A stretch of 64,000 nt of DNA from Ascidia mentula. Taxonomy: Eukaryota; Chordata; Ascidiacea; Phlebobranchia; Ascidiidae. The position numbers were made by a program, and so were the translations under genes. Numbering within the stretch: the stretch's first letter is position 1; the number at the start of each line of letters is the position of its first letter. Below the pieces are notes generated by a model. The model was not told where the DNA came from. It made no database searches and worked only from the letters and a program-made list of their open reading frames with translations. Below, piece after piece: positions 512-53,444 of this stretch. The stretch covers positions 11,413,001 through 11,477,000 of the forward strand of contig OX387205.1 in the NCBI GenBank assembly GCA_947561715.1. The letters are read 5' to 3'.

Positions 512-1521
512 ATGAGTGATAGTGAATCGCACGCTACACCTGAGAACATACAAACAAAGGTGCACAATTATCGGTCAAAAAGGAGTCCAAATTGGAGCAC
601 CAAAGGTGATACCTACATCACATATTTGTTTGTAAATGGTTTCTTTTTGTTCGTGGATTTTTTTGGTTATTTTATTGTAGCAAAGCATTTTATTGTAACG
701 GAGAAATGTTTTCAGAAATAGAGGTGCTCTGTCAGTTTGTGCGTGAACACAAAAAGGGTCTTTTCTCAAGGAGTGCGAAAGGTTCGAACGCAAGCAAACA
801 GCGTTTATGGGAACGAGTTACGCAACTGATCACAACCACGTGTGGCGTGGATCGGCATTGGATTCAAGTTAGAAAAAAGTGGAAAGACCTTTCATACTGC
901 GCAAGGAACATGCAAAAAGGTTTACAAACTACTCCATATGTGTAGAAAAATATTCTTCTTTCTATCCATACTTAGCATTATTTTTCTATAGAAGCTGATC
1001 AAACCAACTCCAACGATACCGCCTACTCGTCCACTTCATCTGATATATCGTCGCCCTCAAGCATTCTCTCATCGTGCGAATTCCAGTCACTGGCTTGTGT
1101 CAAGGTGGAGACAGACTCTTCGTACAGTGTTGAAGATGTAACCGCGCCCATACAACCTCCAGTAGTGGAGTTCCAGGGTGAGGGACCACCAGCGGGGCTC
1201 CAGATATGCAGGGTATCAAGTCAATCTTCATGCGATACAAACGCAGAAAACGGCGACACTTCAAGTTCAAACGGTCCAACCGAAATGTCCGCTTACGAGG
1301 CATCACGCTTGGAGATTGAAAGGGAGAAGCTGGAACTGCAACGGAACTCCCTCGAGTGCCTTAAAGACATATCGTCCGGGTTGCGCAAAATGAATACAAC
1401 CCTTTCTCGTTTAAAAAGACGTAGGAGAATGGCGGGTCATGATTCGAGAGCGAAAAGACGTCGAGCCATTTCACGTCGTCGCAATGTAAGCGCGTCTGAA
1501 TCTTCAGATTACGACTTTTAG
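512..1521 (+). CDS. Myb/SANT-like DNA-binding domain protein, 275 aa, 3 exons
   Basis: Exons are 512-605, 716-919 and 992-1521; the phases join exactly, giving 275 residues. Residues about 25-100 form a Myb/SANT-like domain of the NAIF1/MSANTD type: a start reading RSPNWSTKEIEVLCQFVREH, then a W in LWERV and a final W in KKWKDLSYCARN, the spaced tryptophans of a three-helix fold. A serine-rich acidic linker follows, then a charged helix (about residues 185-225) and a very basic tail (RLKRRRRMAG, AKRRRAISRRR) likely to be a nuclear localisation signal, ending in an acidic SESSDYDF. This layout, N-terminal trihelix plus C-terminal coiled and basic region, is typical of nuclear regulators and of domesticated Harbinger-transposon partner proteins. 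The DNA target is unknown. A polyadenylation signal follows at 1560. Confidence 0.85.
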
Positions 1522-9990: not shown

Positions 9991-12179
9991 ATGCCGTTTC
10001 CGCGGAAGCTTGTGAAATCATTTGGGGCGCTGGCCCTTCTGTCTGTCAACTTGTACGTCCTACATGTGCTCCTGGTTTCACACCAGGTAAGATGGGGTGA
10101 TTGTTTTCTGTGTTGTGTTATTGTATATCGCTAGACGGTAAAGACATTGCAGAGTTGGGATTTTCGATTGGTCTTATTTGTATTGCACAACTATTGTTTA
10201 GTTATTTTCCTGATCAATCAGTATACATCATTTCAATTAGTGCCAGCGTCTGGTTTATATGCAAGATCGAAAGCAAATCTAATACAACACAACATATTAT
10301 CAATATTGTGTTTGTTGCCTTGCACGAAATACTCCACGCCAAAACTACAGATATTCACATTGGCAGGTGGCAAACCAGGAAGCAATGCGGGGAATTCCCA
10401 TTGCGTCACGAGCATTTTTAACATCTCAGGCTGCGTGGGTTGAACCAACAGAAAATTCAATAGCCCTGGAGCTCCAGCGACGGGTAACATCGATGCATCA
10501 GCGTTGCGACGACGCAAATCTCACCAGGGCTTTGGATTTTAACAAGCTCCCGTAAGTCCTCTTAGATTTAATGGAGAGTTAACGGCATCACAAAATACAT
10601 GGCATCTTTAAGGTTTGTCCGGTACCTTTTCCGGTTTGGTATACCCTTTACATTTGTGCTTCCCAACCTGTTATGGCTTACGGCACCCCACAAAATAAAA
10701 ACGGTTTTCATGGCACCCATTGTGAACCCAAAGAACATCCGCATTGAAATATTACCATGAATATAACAAAAAAATTCCATGGTGAGTATGCATGGAAAGA
10801 AGCTATAGCGGCACCTTCAAAAGTTACAAATGGCACCCCAGTTGGAAATCACTGCTTTACATAATGTATACACCGTGTTTGGATGCTGTTTTTTTTAGTT
10901 AAGTCTTAAAACAACTCCTCTGCTTAAATATAACAAATCCTCTACTTAAATATAAACAGATCACGCCTCTAAAATCTTGCTGTTAAATTCAGGGCTGGTG
11001 ATTGGCCGTGGATTTACGTCTCGCGCGAATACAAGATGCTTTACTGCCAAATTCCAAAAGTAGGCACCACGAACTGGTTGAAACTCTTTGCCGCAATGAA
11101 AAACAGATTTAACACAAGCGGTAGCGCGGGTAAGACACGGTTGCTTATTTGTCTTGAGAAATTAGATCCGTCACAATGCACTGATTAGGTTTAATGCTTT
11201 AAAACACTGCATTATATGAGAACTGCAAACACAAATGCATGTGTTTAGTTTACTTAACTTATGCCAAGTGTAAATTTTGATGAAGTTGAAGTTCTCTAGA
11301 ATTGTATGGGCTATCTTGTTTATATTAAAGATGTACAAAACCGTGAGTTATGTTCCTAAGTGTAAATTATAATTAATTCTGGCCAATGTATTTCTTGCCG
11401 GTTCTGAAGGTGGACGTGACGAAAGTTCAACCATATGAGTAACGTATTATTAATTCAGACTGTTTTATTGGCGCAATTGGTGACAAAATTTGTTTGCGGT
11501 TTATTATGTTCCAAATACTAAATTCTTCAAATCGATCATTTTTTATTCCGTATCAGCAGGCGTGAGTGGCAAAAACGTACACGGAATGAAACTTGAACTT
11601 CTTTCGTATCTGAAGCCAAATGAACGGAAGCAGGTTTTACGCAACTTTACCAAGTTCCTTGTGGTTCGCGATCCGTTCGAGCGAGCTCTGTCTGCGTTTC
11701 GGGACAAATTCGAATGGTGCCCCGACCTCAAGGGTCCCATGTTTCGTAAACTATCCAAAAACCTAGTGGAGCGCTACAGAACAAATTATTCGGCAGGGCA
11801 CACCTCAAGACTGCCACCTCTGCCGCGATTTAGCGAATTCGTGCAGTTTCTCGTCGATCCGCAAGGTAGCGCTCTGGTGACGCACTATTCGGAGCCGAGA
11901 CATTGGCAGCCGCAAAACCAGCTTTGTTTTCCCTGCAATATCGACTACGACTACGTTTTGAGTCTTGACAATATAGATGCCGAAGCCGAATTTTTGCTGA
12001 GAGCCTCTGGGGTGCCAGAGGTTATAAAATATCCGCCAAGGGGGAGCAAAAAGAACCAATATGCTGAAATGATGACGGCGTATTACGGAAGCGTAGACCC
12101 AAGATTCGTGAATGCCTTGTATCATTACTACGCCCTGGATTACCGAATATTTGACTTCAGCCCTCCACCTCAGTTTTAA
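9991..12179 (+). CDS. Golgi carbohydrate sulfotransferase, HNK-1ST/CHST8-14 family, about 346 aa, 4 exons
   Basis: Exons: 9991-10086, 10367-10551, 10993-11129 and 11557-12179, phases all consistent. The N-terminus has basic residues and one hydrophobic helix (about residues 11-30), a type II Golgi anchor with a very short cytosolic tail. The catalytic part shows both PAPS-binding signatures: CQIPKVGTTNW at residues 112-122 (5'-phosphosulfate loop) and FLVVRDPFERALSAFRDKF at 173-191 (3'-phosphate site, R177 and S185). The family transfers sulfate from PAPS to hydroxyls of GalNAc, GlcA or related sugars on chondroitin/dermatan or glycoprotein glycans. Length and a conserved C-terminal RFVNALYHYYALDYRIFDF fit the family. 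Which sugar is modified cannot be told from the sequence. The first bases of the last exon form a NAGNAG acceptor (11557 or 11560), giving isoforms differing by one alanine. Confidence 0.92.
10653..10857. mobile_element. hAT-type MITE remnant in sulfotransferase intron 2
   Basis: The ends form an imperfect inverted pair: GTGCTTCCCAACCTG at about 10656 and CAGTTGGAAATCACTG near 10838-10855, of the CAGTG(G/A)TT..CCAACC type common in hAT miniature elements. Inside, GGCACCC motifs repeat at intervals. There is no coding content. The same kind of end occurs near 7305-7325, 23472-23493 and 25770-25793. Confidence 0.5.
11380..11444 (+). repeat. Dispersed repeat, copy B
   Basis: Partner of 9560-9625, in intron 3 of the sulfotransferase gene, same strand. 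The two copies are about 1.8 kb apart and lie either side of the first exons. Confidence 0.6.
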
Positions 12180-46162: not shown

Positions 46163-49100
46163 TTAAATATCGTCATCTTGTTGCTTTGTTGAATCGCGTT
46201 TTGAAATCGAACTTTCCAATCCAGTCGCACTTTTCGAATATAACGGGTGCATGGCTTCTTTCAGGCTGTTAAACAGACGAGGATGGAGAATTTCTTGCGA
46301 GGCAAGAAGTTGTTTCATACGGTGTCGCTCCTGTATGCAACCATATGATTAAACAGTGACAAGTGCCGAAATTCCAAAAAGGGCCGAATTACAATACCGC
46401 TGATGTTTGAAACCAGCAAGAAAATGCATAATTTTGCAAGACTTTGTGAAAAAATGGTCCAAAAAATCCATAAAACGCCGACGTTTTAAACAAAACAGTT
46501 GGTACTAATCAAGTATTAAGTTACAAATGTCTTTTGGTCAATTTTGTAAAAACAATACAATGTAAAAAATTATCAACAAGCGAAAGTGTCCAATCTGTTG
46601 ACTTATCAGTGCAATTCCAACTGTGCTTCAAATTTGTAAACGTAGAACACTGGGGACGACTTGGCGCGAAATCAATGCAAAAGGAAACGTTATGTTACTA
46701 ACTCGTCACCCATTTAAAACAAATTTTCGATGAATTTTTTTGTCTCTGCCTAGAAAGTTATATAAATATATACGATGAAACATCAAATAATTCCACCTTT
46801 GGAGCTTCGAAGCACGCTGGGCAGTTTTCAGGTATAACTGGAAGCTTTGAGGATTCGGCAAATTGTCTTGTGTCGGTTTCGCGAACGTAGATGAAAGGGC
46901 GAATCACACGCAAATCACCTTCCCTTTATAACAAAATATACCACCATACAAACCCTGTAACCTTTCCTCGTCTGTTTATTTAAAGGTTTTTTAGGTTTTA
47001 AATGAAGGTTAATTGAAGGCAAAAAACACACAAATACGTTGTTTTATTTCAGATTAAACATAAGCAACGTGTAGCATAGGATATTCCTTATTTGGCTTGT
47101 ACAATGGTTGTTTAACAACATGCCTTTTGACACTATTTAGCTTCTTGTTTGACTTACTGAAGTAAATAATTGCTTTACACGTCCAGTTGCACCGAATACA
47201 AACCACAAACTTACTGCACAGTGTAATTGGCTTTCATGGTCCGAAGCAAACCATTGTGGAAAGCGGACATGAGGAAACTTTCGGCAAGATCGTCCAGGTG
47301 TTGACCAAATGCGAGGACATTCCAACCCTCTCTTCTGGCACAAGCGTATATCCGACCCCTCTTCATCCGAGAACAAAACGCACAAATTGACGTGGCAGAA
47401 GTCTCAAGCGCCTGTTCTAGAATGTCTGAAAGTTTGATGGATTTGTTAGAAGCGGAAAATGATTGATGGTTGATTATTTGAGATAATTGGCGAACAGGAT
47501 TAACTAAATACGAATATCAACAAAATATTTTTAGTTTCCAAATACAAATCAAAGCACAACTAATTTTTAAGTAGTAACACCGAAGGCAGTTTTTATCAAA
47601 AAATTTCGGATATTTAATGACTCACTCTGTTCTTCATAGAAGTAAGTTACATTTAAGGCTTTAAGGTATGGAATCAAAGGTGAAGGGTCAAACGATGAGG
47701 TCATGGGGTCAACTGTAACAGCTCCCAGATTAAAGTTAACACCTCGACTTTTCGCATAGAATTGATACTGATGCAGGACGTGAAGCAATGATAAGGAATC
47801 CTGTTAATTTTAACACAAATACAATTATTCTACAACTAACAGTGTGCAATAAAGTTTACAATGGAGAACAAGATCTTACCTTGCCTCCAGATAAGCAAAC
47901 CAACACTTTATCTCCATTACAAATCATCTGAAACTCCTCAATTGCGTCAGCAGTTAACTTAAACAGTCTTTTTGGTGGCGATGCAAACATTGCTTTAATT
48001 GCTGTAGAGTTTGTTTGAGATTGTGGTTTGCATTTCTTGCAAGTGATATTTTCATTAGGGTCAACATCTTGGCTTTCCGACGCAACACTTCCATTTTCTA
48101 CTTCTCTTGCAGGTTGAACATGAGGTGTTTCCAGCTTTAAATGGGAAATATCAGCAGTGTTTTGCACAATCTGTTTCTGAACTTTTTTCGTGACTGCAGT
48201 GTTGAGCAACTTTCGCTGCGCTTCAATCAACTTGTTTGTTTCTTCCAATGTCAGAACACGTATTGTCTTTCTCACTTTGAAGACATTTGCTGGAGGAAGT
48301 GGAACAAGTGTTTTGTTTTGTATCAGTAGCTGAGCTTCTGATGGTAGAAGAAACCAACGGAGGTGGGCTACACTGTTACTGAACATCAACTGATGATTAG
48401 GGAGTTTGTTTTCATATCCCTGCATCAAAAAAAAGTATTTTGTGCTTTTGTTATATGTGAACACCAAGTCTAAAGTTGTAAAAATATACCACAAATAGTT
48501 TCAGCTTCATCTATGGATTTTTCAGGGTATAAAAATATTAACTATGACACAAAAACCAAACTAATGTACGATTGAATGTCTGCCCTGTTCTACCAAGGAA
48601 ATTTGTCTGCTCAAATATGTACAAAGTAGCGAAAATTCTTAATTTCTAAAATATATTGTATGGTGGCAAATTGTACTGCCTGCAATACAAAACCCACCTT
48701 TAATGGTTGTTGAAATATTTGCTGAGCCATCTCAAGAACTTTGTTTGCTTCTATTGAATCTTTATATTTCACATTGTGAGACAGTTCCAGCCCATCACCG
48801 GTAAACCTAACATGCCCAAGCCATTTTCTGTCAGCAAATACCTTTGCAACAACGAATACAAAAATGGTCTTAGGAAAATACTAATAAACAACAAATAGTA
48901 AAAGACTGATATAAATTTTGTATATATTAGGAATGTTTGTACATTCTAAAAAAAATTCCTTAAATGTATATCTATGCTTGCAATGGCCAACATTGCACAT
49001 GAGCAGTTTCAGCATTTTTTCACAGTATTTAAAGCATGTTAAAACGAAGAATATTTCATCAGCACACCTTGTGCTTTGTATGCCTCCATTCTCCTGTTTC

Positions 49101-51893
49101 TGGGTTAAACATATACTGTGGAAGAAGTCGCCACCCATGTTCTGCTACCATGGCAACTGCTTTGATCACAAAGTCTGCTTCCTCATCCGAGCAGAAAAAG
49201 GGAAAATTTAAGCGCACAAAGCCTGGTCTTAGAACCTCATTTTGTGAGTATTCGCTTTGACGTCGAAGATGAACTCGGTCAAGTCGCCTGGATAACAAGT
49301 TAACTATCTACTAGCTGTGTTAATTCCTAAACAAAATTAAAAATACAATTGCTTAAGATGTCTGGTCTTGTTTATGCTGCTTAATATTGTCTGTGTTTGC
49401 CTTGTTTACTGCAGTTAAAATAACAAACTTGATGCAGAAATGTGTTTAGTCTTTCTATAGGAAATTGTGGTGACAGAATATTTTGCATAGAAAAGGGTAC
49501 AAGCCTGTCTTCCAACAAAGCTTCTTCAAATTCTTTGGCTTTTTGCTCATCGATGCCCAACAAATCTTGAGCATATGGACCAGCACATGCACAACCTCCA
49601 CGAGCCTAAAAAACACAATTTTTATTAGGCAAAAAACTTGTATAACTACCATAAACAGGAAAACTATCCATATCATATGAAACAAACCATACTTGGATTC
49701 CAAATAAATCATTCAACAAGGCAGCAATGTAATTGTGATGAAGATAGTTTTGTGTTTGGGGACAAAACACCATGAAGGAAAAAATTGCCAACTGGTCGTC
49801 TGTTGTTTTGTCACATTTTCCGAGTATTTCAAGATTTTGATGCCTGCTCCATTGTTCTAATGCTCTGTCAAACAAATGTGTTTCTCTCTGTGCAATGTTG
49901 ATGGCTGCTACACTCTACAATGTTGCAAAATGAAGATACATATATTTACGTTGTGGTATATTATAGTTTTTGTAATCACATGATGAAGATAAATTTAACA
50001 ACATTATCTGTCGTAACAAAATTAATTGATATTTTATGTCATAAACAATACTCACAATTAGCACTACATATGCTGTGACACATGTCCAACACAGCAGTAT
50101 TTTACTTGCCTGCTTTAATTCCATGGCAAGAGCAGCTCTAACACTACCAACAACACGGGGAGTTCCCCCTTCCTCTCTAGCCTCCTCATCTTGAAGATAA
50201 CGGTGCCCATTCCTTCTCACGAAGAAAACAGCTCCTCCTCCGGAATTGGAAGGGACAGCGTTTTGAAAAAGGGATCGCTTGGCAACCAACAACCCTTTGG
50301 GCAGAAATAAAAAAGTCAAAGGCATTGGTTCATCTTTTATGAACATATGTAACACAATAACATTCTGTACGTTTGTAATCTGACATGTTTTTTGTACCCT
50401 TGTTATCTGACATGTTTGCTATTTCATTTTGCAAATTACTGAAAAAAATTTACAACAGAAAGTGTGAAATAAAAAGTTCCATTTCTGAGGTATATGCCAG
50501 TTTTTAGAAAAAGTTACAGACAAAAAAATTGCATACAAACAAAATTACCTGGAGCATCAACACCTCCAATGAACTTGTGCATCGACAGAAAGATGGCATC
50601 TTTGGAGGCATCACCCTCAGACAACGGATGCATATCAATGTTAACGTAGGGGCCAGCAGTAGCATAATCCCAAAACGCAAGAGCCCCATATTTGTGCAAC
50701 AGCGATGATACAGCAACAGTGTCAGTTACAATACCTGAAAATTAGGACCATAAAGACAACTAGACCAATTTCTTGTAGTCTGGCGAAAAACAACCAACCT
50801 GTTACATTGGAAGCAGCTGAAAAACAACCAATTATTTGAAGTCCACAACCCTGGTAAGCTTTTAGTCCTGCCTCTAGGTGAGCAAGATTGATGTGTCCAT
50901 CTATGTCTTCACTTATTCTAACGACCTTAAATTGTTTCACAAATTACTGTATTAGCATAGAATGTCAAAAATTATGATCGGAATTCAACAGCTAAGATTG
51001 CCTGCCATGTACAGCCTATGTAGTGAAGCGAATAAAACATTTCGGCTCTTGTAATATTCAACAAATATTGTTTATATTACTTGGGCAGCAATTTCCCTCC
51101 ACGGAAGTAGGTTGGAATGATGCTCATGAGGACCCACAAATACAACTGGTGGGTCGACAAAGTTAAGAGCATTTATTAATTTGTCCACTGCACCAGTGAC
51201 ACCATTCCCAGCAAAGATCACTGCATCATGCTCATCTGCATGCAAAGCATTTCTCAACATAACTCTGCAAATAAAATTCACATAACTCACACTTTTAAAG
51301 GTATATCGGTGTACTTATCAGTATCTGTATAATGTAAATATAATTAACAGCCCATGGAAATTATTTTTGATACATTACATCAGACATACTTAGTTTAGTT
51401 TTGCCATTAAATTATTATGAGCTGTTGGGACTGAGAATGTACATTACAACAAGTGATATGTCAAAAGAATGTAAACCTTACACTTGTGCTCATGCATATC
51501 AAAAAGAACGAAGTAAATAGTATATGCAAACCTTGCCTCCTGAAGGAACATTGATGATTGCAGAGACGTAACAGTTGTTGTTGTATGTGTGTTTCCATAG
51601 AATGGAAGAATATGATCCCTAATATAAGACTCAATACATTCCAAAGCCCGTCCAGATGCCACATGGTCACAGTACACAACTTTTCTTAAACCATATGGCC
51701 CAGACAACGTTGTCTCCTTTCCAATGACATTTGCATCAATAAACTTCATTATCCCCTCATGGTGACTTTTGGAAGTTAGATGAGAATTTCCGTTACCACC
51801 GGCAACAAACTTAGATGGAATGTCATGAAAGCGTCTTCGGCCATGCAATTGTTTGTTGGTCTCAAAACTTTGCGATTTAAAAGTGGAAGCCAT
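46163..51893 (-). CDS. Fusion of a cysteine-desulfurase-like class V aminotransferase and a TtcA-like tRNA thiolation domain, about 980 aa, 14 exons
   Basis: Minus-strand exons: 51532-51893, 51081-51264, 50799-50925, 50549-50734, 50110-50294, 49693-49914, 49505-49605, 49068-49287, 48698-48841, 47880-48419, 47626-47800, 47215-47416, 46797-46923 and 46163-46330. Phases join throughout, 981 codons with stop. Residues about 60-520 are a PLP class V fold: D247 in FWDYATAG, the PLP lysine K278 in SMHKFIGG, and a cysteine pair in RGGCACAGPY (C427, C429) where desulfurases hold a catalytic Cys. After a low-complexity linker (about 600-730), residues 735-970 are TtcA-like: PP-loop SGGKDSLSLLH (754-764), CAFC (C827, C830), GQHLDD, and NCPACFEAPK (C917, C920), giving cysteines for a 4Fe-4S cluster. 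TtcA makes 2-thiocytidine in tRNA using sulfur from a desulfurase, so the fusion would join donor and transferase. The ends of exons 5 and 7 use GC donors; exon 7 is the least certain. Confidence 0.88.
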
Positions 51894-52021
51894 GTAAAAT
51901 AGCAGCAACCAAAATATTTTCAATAAATACTGACCAAACACTAAAAGGTAGCTGAAAGCAACACAAACAATTTTAATAGTTTTAACACATAATGTACTAG
52001 TTGTTGTTGATAAAACTCTTT
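51894..52021 (-). promoter_or_regulatory. Short intercistronic spacer, candidate spliced-leader acceptor region
   Basis: Only 128 bp separate the DUS4L stop from the ATG of the downstream gene on the same strand. In the sense of transcription the spacer has a pyrimidine-rich TTGCTTTCAG and a second CAG nearer the ATG, plus a weak ATTAAA polyadenylation signal at about 51971-51976. It is too short for an ordinary promoter plus terminator. In tunicates such spacing marks operons in which downstream genes receive a spliced leader. Confidence 0.5.
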
Positions 52022-53157
52022 TCAAACATGTATGAATTTATCTAAATATTCCAAAACTGCTGGAGTGCTTTGCAGTGAATTGAATATTCGTTTTTCAGGT
52101 TTTGATGTAACTTTTTCAAGCATGTAGATCAGGTGATTATGAAAACAGGTGAATGGTGTTCCAAGACTAATGGCAATGTCAACCCAATCCTTAATACATT
52201 CAATTGGAGTTTGCTGATAATTACTAAATATAGCCGGGTTCGCTAAAATTCCTCTTGCCACCATGACACCTTTTGACCCTGAAATAAAATAACATTTTTA
52301 CAGTTAAGATTTTAAAGTGTTTTAGCTATGAATGCAGTTAGCTATGAATGAAGTACTAAAAACAGATGATCAAGTCTTCTAATATAAAAAAATGCATGCT
52401 AATAATATTTTATTTTACTGGAAGATTGTGGATACCAGTAAATTAAATCCAGCAACGAACCAGTTAAATGATGCACTTTATGAAGATCATCCATTGTATT
52501 CACATCGCCATTGGCAACAACTGGAATTGAAATGGAATCACTGATGAGTTTCATTTCATCATAGTGCACTGGTTGGTAGCGTTCATTTGTAGTTCTTCCA
52601 TGTATAGATATGTAACTTAAACCTGTCCGTTCCAAAGCTTGGCACAAGGACACAGTTTGTTTGATATTGGCATGCAAACGGATCTTAACAGAAACTGAAA
52701 ATGTTGTATCTGATATTCGTGCTCTTGTTTGCTTCACAAAATCAACCAGTTCCTCTGGCTTTCGGAGGAGTTTGGCTCCATAACCCTCAGCCATTGCCCA
52801 ACGCTGGGGGCATCCACAGTTCAAGCATACTCCATCACAGAAAGGATATACCATTTCGGTGGCATCAGCAAAGTCCTTGGCGTTGTTGGCTGCAAACTGC
52901 ACAACCAAAGGCCGATCTGTCTCATTAGTTGTGAATTCAACGTCTTGACATGCCTTCGATTTGACAAATGAGCTTGAAACAATCATAGGGGTGTAAGCTA
53001 AATCGCATCCATACTTTCGCACAAGCATCCTGAACGCCAACTTGGAATAACGCACCATGGGTGCACATATTTTTACTGGCTGTTTGTTGTTCAACAATTC
53101 GACAATGTCGCAGCGTTTTCCTTCGCAGTTGCTATTAACTGTAAGTGAATTCTCCAT
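52022..53157 (-). CDS. DUS4L: tRNA-dihydrouridine synthase 4-like, 317 aa, 2 exons
   Basis: Exons 52461-53157 and 52022-52278 join in phase to give 317 residues, the length I recall for the human protein. The FMN-binding TIM barrel is clear: an early KICAPMVRYSKLAFRMLVRK segment, then PLVVQFAANNAKDFADAT, the catalytic-cysteine loop DGVCLNCGCPQRWAMAEGYG, SVSVKIRLH, YISIHGRTTNERYQP, IPVVANGDV and GVMVARGILANPAIF, the phosphate-binding end of the barrel. Dus4 enzymes reduce uridine to dihydrouridine at positions 20a/20b of the tRNA D-loop with NADPH and FMN. It is divergent from HINFP (287 bp between starts) and is followed 128 bp later by the desulfurase-TtcA fusion, another tRNA modification gene. 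Confidence 0.96.
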
Positions 53158-53444
53158 TGTGAGATCAACAAATGTGTGTTGTTATTGCACACGTGCTTTT
53201 TTAGAAACATCTGTGCTTAACCAAGCGTGGGGTAAAGAAAAAAGGTTTGGTTTTTCTTTTTTTCTGTCACTTTCCGACTGGATTCATTTGCCTTCGTGGA
53301 TTTGGCGGGAACAATACTTTCCTATAAATCACAAAAAAATTGTCTAGCTGTTTTTTGTTCATAAATTTAGGGTTTGTGCTGCAAGGTGCGCATAAGAGCC
53401 GTTATTGGGCACAATATGCTTTGAGGTGAAAACTGATATTTAAG
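53158..53444. promoter_or_regulatory. Divergent promoter region between DUS4L and HINFP
   Basis: The two start codons face away from each other across 287 bp. No TATA box is placed convincingly on either side. The stretch is T-rich near DUS4L. Both flanking genes have housekeeping roles (tRNA modification, histone H4 transcription), which suits a shared bidirectional promoter. Confidence 0.5.

What the first reader, a model, noticed from the sequence alone, without database searches (positions are those of the whole stretch)
46163..51893. Animal gene fusing a cysteine-desulfurase-like enzyme to a complete TtcA-type tRNA thiolase
Seen: one chain of 14 phase-compatible exons joins a PLP class V aminotransferase (K278, cysteines 427/429) to a PP-loop domain with SGGKDS, CAFC and NCPAC motifs. 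Known: bacterial TtcA thiolates C32 of tRNA using a 4Fe-4S cluster, with sulfur from the separate desulfurase IscS; eukaryotic cytosolic thiolation uses Ctu1/Ctu2 and Urm1. Inferred: the fusion is a self-contained tRNA thiolase or sulfur-relay enzyme in an animal, a role I do not know to be described. All key residues seem intact, so it is not a relic.
Basis: partly seen in the sequence, partly recalled or inferred. Interest (0 to 1): 0.88.

Follow-up and report, generated by a model that had tools for sequence, protein, structure and literature searches.

The report
Animal-wide desulfurase–tRNA thiolase fusion gene
A sea squirt gene joins two bacterial-type enzymes, one that looks able to take sulfur from cysteine and one that looks able to put sulfur on tRNA, into a single protein that many animal groups share but that I found no study of.

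Summary
On the minus strand, 51893–46163, 14 exons encode one 983-residue protein: a SufS-like cysteine-desulfurase half and a TtcA-type tRNA-thiolase half. The boundary lies inside one uninterrupted exon (48419–47880), so separate mRNAs cannot explain it. It is not peculiar to this ascidian: the same fusion fills the best-120 lists of two database searches, from sponges to amphioxus, with no vertebrate named. The key motifs of both halves are present in 130 of 131 of these proteins. Each half resembles a different stand-alone bacterial gene. The thiolase half's bacterial subfamily is the only TtcA-type protein in 37 of 38 genomes checked. Bacterial relatives of the other half sit beside a DecR-like, cysteine-type regulator in 6 of 8 loci read. 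Best reading: a thiolase with its own sulfur donor that makes 2-thiocytidine, or a close relative, in animal tRNA. Activity, Fe-S cluster and substrate are untested. Databases already name some orthologues TtcA; eight paper searches found no description of the fusion.

The parts
51532..51893 (-). exon 1, ATG at 51893; start of the desulfurase-like half
51081..51264 (-). exon 2 (EHHSN motif; H169 aligns with SufS H123)
50799..50925 (-). exon 3
50549..50734 (-). exon 4, PLP lysine K278 (MHKFIGG)
50110..50294 (-). exon 5; followed by a GC-AG intron
49693..49914 (-). exon 6
49505..49605 (-). exon 7, RGGCACAGPY with C427 and C429 (C429 aligns with the SufS catalytic Cys); followed by a GC-AG intron
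49068..49287 (-). exon 8
48698..48841 (-). exon 9
47880..48419 (-). exon 10: end of the desulfurase half (RWFLLPSEA, residue 598), poorly conserved linker, and start of the thiolase half up to SGGK (754-757); the domain boundary lies inside this exon
47626..47800 (-). exon 11 (thiolase half, from DS of SGGKDS)
47215..47425 (-). exon 12, corrected start 47425; CAFC motif C830/C833
46797..46923 (-). exon 13, NCPAC motif C920/C923
46163..46330 (-). exon 14 and stop codon
52022..53181 (-). neighbouring tRNA dihydrouridine synthase (Dus) gene on the same strand (open frames 52399-53181 and 52022-52297), stop codon 52024-52022, 128 bases before the fusion's ATG
51952..51960 (-). splice-acceptor-like TGCTTTCAG between the Dus stop codon and the fusion's ATG, as expected if the two genes form a trans-spliced operon (inference)

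Best explanation
The gene makes one bifunctional protein. The N-terminal SufS-like half (about residues 40-610) uses PLP on K278 to take sulfur from L-cysteine as a persulfide on C429. The sulfur is passed within the chain or dimer to the C-terminal TtcA-type half. There cysteines of C830/C833 and C920/C923 hold an Fe-S cluster, the PP-loop uses ATP to activate a tRNA base, and sulfur is inserted at position 2, most likely of cytidine 32 (s2C32). It is thus a TtcA-type thiolase with its own sulfur donor, fixed early in animals by joining two bacterial-type genes, and apparently lost in vertebrates. Shown here: gene structure, fold of the first half, residue conservation, different bacterial relatives of the two halves, wide spread in animals. 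Inferred: every chemical step, the Fe-S cluster, tRNA C32 as substrate, and the loss in vertebrates.
Against: No activity, tRNA or Fe-S data. Scores lie below NCBI's curated cut-offs for TtcA (184 of 272 bits) and SufS (112 of 475). The thiolase half is only 34% identical to E. coli TtcA. One of the 38 genomes has both kinds of TtcA, and most of the 38 are drafts. A 2020 review assigns s2C to archaea and bacteria only (PMC7694415, passages) and a 2022 paper calls it absent in human tRNA (PMC9508811, passages); no source seen here reports it in an animal. The Ciona model (pTM 0.68, linker pLDDT under 50) does not show how the two active sites face each other.
Confidence: 0.6

Rival explanations
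1. The fusion is a bifunctional thiolase as above, but its target is not tRNA C32: another tRNA position, another RNA or a small molecule.
For: TtuA, NcsA, TilS and LarE share this fold and differ in substrate. s2C has not been reported in animals in the sources seen. Low identity to E. coli TtcA; score under the TtcA cut-off.
Against: The thiolase half scores far better with the TtcA model than with TtuA, TilS or NcsA (184 versus 47, 46 and 25 bits), and its bacterial subfamily is the only TtcA-type protein in 37 of 38 genomes.
Confidence: 0.22
2. The desulfurase half supplies sulfur for building the Fe-S cluster of the thiolase half, or releases sulfide or persulfide generally, and is not the donor of the sulfur put on RNA.
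For: SufS-type enzymes mainly serve Fe-S assembly (established knowledge); bacterial homologues sit beside DecR-like regulators, and DecR/CyuR controls cysteine breakdown.
Against: A fusion conserved across animals suggests direct hand-over; no Fe-S scaffold domain was found in the protein (Pfam scan).
Confidence: 0.13
3. Two separate genes or mRNAs were joined by the reader.
For: Only genomic DNA was read; no transcripts of this species were available.
Against: The boundary lies inside one exon. In 122 of 131 listed proteins in which both patterns matched, the desulfurase end motif precedes the PP-loop in one chain; some of these bear transcript-assembly names (P0044, P0085).
Confidence: 0.02
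4. Bacterial contamination or a recent transfer into this genome.
For: Both halves resemble bacterial proteins.
Against: 14 exons, more than 11 Mb into a contig of a 196-Mb genome; the thiolase halves of 23 animal fusions, sponges included, form one clade (100*).
Confidence: 0.01

Closest known systems
TtcA, tRNA-cytidine(32) 2-sulfurtransferase (E. coli)
   Same: PP-loop and both CxxC motifs align; best-matching NCBIfam family.
   Different: Stand-alone in bacteria and fed by IscS (PMC5372739 and PMC7694415, passages); 34% identity; the animal half belongs to a sister subfamily and is fused to a desulfurase-like half.
SufS/CsdB (group II) cysteine desulfurases
   Different: About 25% identity; a further invariant Cys two residues before the catalytic one; extra C-terminal part ending in RWFLLPSE; fused to a thiolase; under the SufS model's cut-off.
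CD-Rhd fusion of Pseudorhodoferax (PMC8931425, section 11)
   Same: Desulfurase fused to its sulfur acceptor in one chain; the acceptor domain raises the desulfurase rate.
   Different: The acceptor is a rhodanese, not a tRNA thiolase; bacterial; the authors found it through COG1104, to my knowledge the IscS-type group.
ABA3 / MOCOS (desulfurase-like + MOSC)
   Same: Eukaryotic desulfurase-like domain fused to its user domain (ABA3: PMC8931425; MOCOS recalled).
   Different: Second domain is MOSC for molybdenum cofactor; no MOSC and instead a PP-loop domain here.
Ctu1/NcsA and TtuA thiolases
   Same: Related PP-loop tRNA thiolases, NcsA and TtuA with Fe-S clusters.
   Different: Fed through ubiquitin-like carriers (established knowledge); this genome has its own Ctu1-like protein, Ctu2 and Urm1.
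Unstudied animal orthologues, e.g. Ciona LOC100175538, Trichoplax 'TtcA', Nymphon 'tRNA-cytidine(32) 2-sulfurtransferase'
   Same: The same fusion.
   Different: Automatic names only; I found none described in a paper (searches listed under Tried and rejected).

Membership tests
PP-loop family (PF01171) | Over Pfam gathering score; PP-loop SGGKDS | tested here: met
   42.7 bits versus 27; motif at 754; GG[KR]DS in 131 of 131 listed fusions
TtcA (bacterial equivalog) | Two CxxC motifs aligned with E. coli C122/C125 and C210/C213 | tested here: met
   C830/C833 and C920/C923
TtcA (bacterial equivalog) | Score over NCBIfam equivalog cut-off NF007972 | tested here: not met
   184.3 of 272 bits; so called TtcA-type here, not filed as the TtcA equivalog
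TtcA (bacterial equivalog) | [4Fe-4S] cluster and s2C32 formation in tRNA | not testable with these tools
   needs protein and tRNA analysis
Class V PLP enzymes with SufS-like fold | Over Pfam Aminotran_5 gathering score; SufS fold | tested here: met
Class V PLP enzymes with SufS-like fold | PLP lysine and catalytic cysteine of cysteine desulfurases | tested here: met
   K278 and C429 align with SufS K226 and C364
SufS subfamily (TIGR01979) | Score over curated cut-off | tested here: not met
   112.4 of 475.1 bits; so called SufS-like
Cysteine desulfurases | L-cysteine desulfurase activity | not testable with these tools
   needs purified protein
MOCOS/ABA3 | C-terminal MOSC domain | tested here: not met
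   Pfam scan finds only PF00266, PF01171 and a sub-threshold PF00155
Ctu1/NcsA | NcsA model score and zinc ribbon PF16503 | tested here: not met
   24.8 of 500 bits for NcsA, no PF16503; the genome's Ctu1-like protein (L001) has PF16503 and 173 bits for NcsA, itself under that cut-off

The most novel reading that the evidence does not exclude
Many animals outside the vertebrates carry, in a single protein of two bacterial origins, a complete cysteine-to-tRNA sulfur route that needs neither Nfs1 nor Urm1/Ctu1 as sulfur donor. They use it to put 2-thiocytidine, a modification so far recorded for bacteria and archaea, in the anticodon loop of their tRNA. Vertebrates lost both the enzyme and the modification.
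Probability: 0.42. Interest if true: 0.82.

Novelty: new variant of a known kind. Interest (0 to 1): 0.63.

Why it matters
To my knowledge 2-thiolation of tRNA pyrimidines in animals is described only for wobble uridine, through Ctu1/Ctu2/Urm1 in the cytosol and a separate mitochondrial enzyme. A conserved second thiolase with a built-in sulfur donor, from sponges to amphioxus, would add a modification that work on human cells could not have shown. It can be tested at once in laboratory animals such as Ciona, Nematostella and sea urchins. It would also be a case of two bacterial-type genes fused and kept since early animals.

Tried and rejected
Exon 12 starting at 47503 (my first model) was rejected because its 26 extra residues are absent from all 20 relatives aligned. 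A bacterial operon as the fusion's precursor: no desulfurase-like gene was found in the 38 TtcA-subfamily loci, which hold up to 6 kb on each side, and no TtcA gene in the 21 bacterial desulfurase-like loci, which hold at most about 1.5 kb on each side. Recurrent neighbours of the TtcA subfamily: none recurred in more than 8 of 38 loci, and those looked like housekeeping genes to me (there my open-frame lists recognised the TtcA gene in 31 of 38 loci). The second whole-protein search used P0044 in the hope that it was a choanoflagellate protein; it is 79% identical to the sponge Oscarella lobularis, so an origin before animals was not tested. Eight paper searches on the fusion or on s2C gave no description of the fusion in their listings; most subscription papers are not held. 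One more search, for a Ciona operon with a dihydrouridine synthase, returned no paper; the tenth was for DecR. A 2026 study of arthropod genes fused with transferred sequence does not hold the five terms tried in its main text. Three papers found for '2-thiocytidine' in animal work either list it among purchased standards or mention it for a bacterium, so they are no evidence of s2C in animals. Strict motif patterns matched 110 of 131 fusions; looser patterns matched 130 of 131, the exception P0249 being a record marked partial. The fold search with the whole Ciona model was filled by the desulfurase half, so the thiolase half was compared by structure only through a bacterial relative with a mediocre model. 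No tRNA gene lies in the window, and repeats in the region were only weak chance-like pairs.
Full report
What was checked. The window lies on a contig of a 195.8-Mb genome. The best protein match is Phallusia mammillata at 73%, an ascidian of the family Ascidiidae, so this is most likely an ascidian. Eleven introns are GT-AG and two GC-AG. My first model kept a 26-residue stretch at the start of exon 12 that none of 20 aligned relatives has; starting exon 12 at 47425 removes it and gives 983 residues with one terminal stop. A search of the whole genome with the protein gave 14 exon-sized matches, all in this gene; only the best candidates are scored, so a distant paralogue is not excluded.

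The fusion is real. Stand-alone bacterial homologues of the first half end shortly after a motif of the form RWF.LP.E (strict pattern in 11 of 14 examined; RWF itself in 14 of 14 in the alignment). In this gene that motif (residue 598) and the SGGK of the second half's ATP-binding loop (754-757) are encoded by the same uninterrupted exon, 48419-47880. No splicing or polyadenylation choice between exons 9 and 10 could separate the two domains. A database search with the uncorrected 1009-residue model gave 3734 proteins, of which the best 120 are listed; by my reading of the list all 120 carry both Pfam domains, at about 850 to 1,580 residues and 45-73% identity. A second search with a sponge member gave 5507 proteins, 120 listed; one of these (P0249, marked partial) lacks the PP-loop annotation. 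Together the lists hold 131 different proteins; in 122 of them both of my patterns matched, with the desulfurase end motif before the PP-loop, and 130 of 131 match patterns for the PLP lysine, the CxC, the PP-loop and both CxxC motifs. Every listed row that names an organism names an animal: tunicates, hemichordates, echinoderms, amphioxus, cnidarians, Trichoplax, sponges, molluscs, annelids, a brachiopod, a nemertean, chelicerates, crustaceans, non-holometabolous insects and tardigrades. No vertebrate, nematode, fly or beetle is named. Only the best 120 of each search are shown, so this is suggestive of loss, most of all for vertebrates, since amphioxus, sea squirts and sponges all rank high; it is not proof.

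Origins. A tree of 79 thiolase domains (this gene and 22 of the other listed fusions, 40 close bacterial rows, 16 of 28 available canonical rows, E. coli not among the 16) puts the animal fusions in one clade (100*), together with the close bacterial proteins and apart from the canonical ones (100*). The close bacterial set was found mainly with patterns taken from the animal proteins and is biased towards likeness. A tree of 79 desulfurase halves (22 fusions including this gene, 23 animal proteins listed without the thiolase domain, 34 bacterial rows; one partial bacterial locus left out) separates animals from bacteria (100*). Within animals, 13 stand-alone proteins form their own clade (99*), while the other 10 fall among the fusions (97*), as secondary losses, duplications or split gene models would give. 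So animals seem to have two old desulfurase-like genes of one bacterial-type origin, one fused to the thiolase and one not. Both trees are quick searches without bootstrap.

Bacterial context of the first half. 21 of 398 Pseudomonadota genomes have a close homologue (E 1e-60 or better). In the protein database the six bacterial rows that name an organism are Polyangiaceae (2), Kofleriaceae (2), Myxococcales and Deltaproteobacteria. I read 16-17 kb around 8 of the 21, the six best and two lower ones. In 6 of 8 a neighbouring open frame is an Lrp/AsnC-type regulator that is 42-55% identical to E. coli DecR; in the other two (L074, L076) I saw none. DecR, also called CyuR, is a cysteine-dependent regulator of hydrogen sulfide production from cysteine (PMC11408624, passages). 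This clue points to L-cysteine as substrate. No TtcA gene lies in the short stretches held around the 21.

Cell context. The same genome encodes Urm1 (E 2.9e-36), Ctu2 (E 1.6e-13), a Ctu1-like protein (L001; PP-loop and zinc ribbon) and several exon-sized matches to IscS/Nfs1 on contig C2, below that model's whole-protein cut-off as expected for exons. So the fusion adds to the usual route and does not replace it. Directly upstream on the same strand ends a tRNA dihydrouridine synthase gene, its stop codon 128 bases before the fusion's ATG, with a splice-acceptor-like TGCTTTCAG between them. Tunicates trans-splice operons (recalled), so the two tRNA-modifying genes may be one operon; this was not tested further.

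How it probably works. Cysteine is desulfurated on K278/C429, the persulfide is handed to the C-terminal half, a cluster on cysteines of C830/C833 and C920/C923 holds or uses the sulfur, ATP activates the base, and 2-thiocytidine results. Only residues, fold and conservation are shown; the chemistry and the C32 target are inferred, and the model does not show how the two active sites face each other. The nearest working precedent is the Pseudorhodoferax desulfurase-rhodanese fusion, in which the second domain accepts sulfur and raises the desulfurase rate (PMC8931425, section 11).

Known or new. A 2020 review assigns s2C to archaea and bacteria (PMC7694415, passages), and a 2022 paper states that it is absent in human tRNA (PMC9508811, passages). 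One krill study lists a transcript named TtcA with a sinusoidal expression pattern (PMC3714250, one passage), which fits expression of an orthologue, though I did not see that sequence. Eight searches of the held papers found no description of the fusion (listings only). Databases already hold the orthologues, some automatically named TtcA. I therefore rate it a new variant of a known kind: known domains, an unstudied combination, in a kingdom where the expected product is not on record in what I saw. In checking this report I corrected the aligned histidine (H169, not H170), the identity and length ranges, and the number of paper searches; none of these changes the odds.

Noticed in passing
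window 52022-53181, minus strand, and 51952-51960: A tRNA dihydrouridine synthase gene ends 128 bases before the fusion's ATG with a splice-acceptor-like site between; possible trans-spliced operon of two tRNA-modifying genes.
   Followed up: partly
proteins such as P0139-P0192: Animals (echinoderms, a hemichordate, cnidarians, molluscs, a priapulid) also have a second, stand-alone desulfurase-like gene family; 13 of the 23 stand-alone animal rows used form a clade apart from the fusions.
   Followed up: partly
L069-L073, L075: Bacterial stand-alone desulfurase-like proteins sit beside a DecR-like regulator in 6 of 8 loci read: a probable uncharacterised cysteine-metabolism pair.
   Followed up: partly
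L002-L039: A TtcA subfamily with a CPAC-type second motif appears to stand in for E. coli-type TtcA, many of its holders being named as sulfur oxidisers (only TtcA-type match in 37 of 38 genomes).
   Followed up: partly
window introns after exon 5 (from 50109) and exon 7 (from 49504): Two of the 13 introns use GC-AG splice sites.
   Followed up: no
window 11484-12179, plus strand: Open frame with a Sulfotransfer_2 domain (E 4.3e-31).
   Followed up: no
window 976-1521, plus strand: 181-aa open frame with only a sub-threshold Pfam match (20.8 of 25 bits).
   Followed up: no
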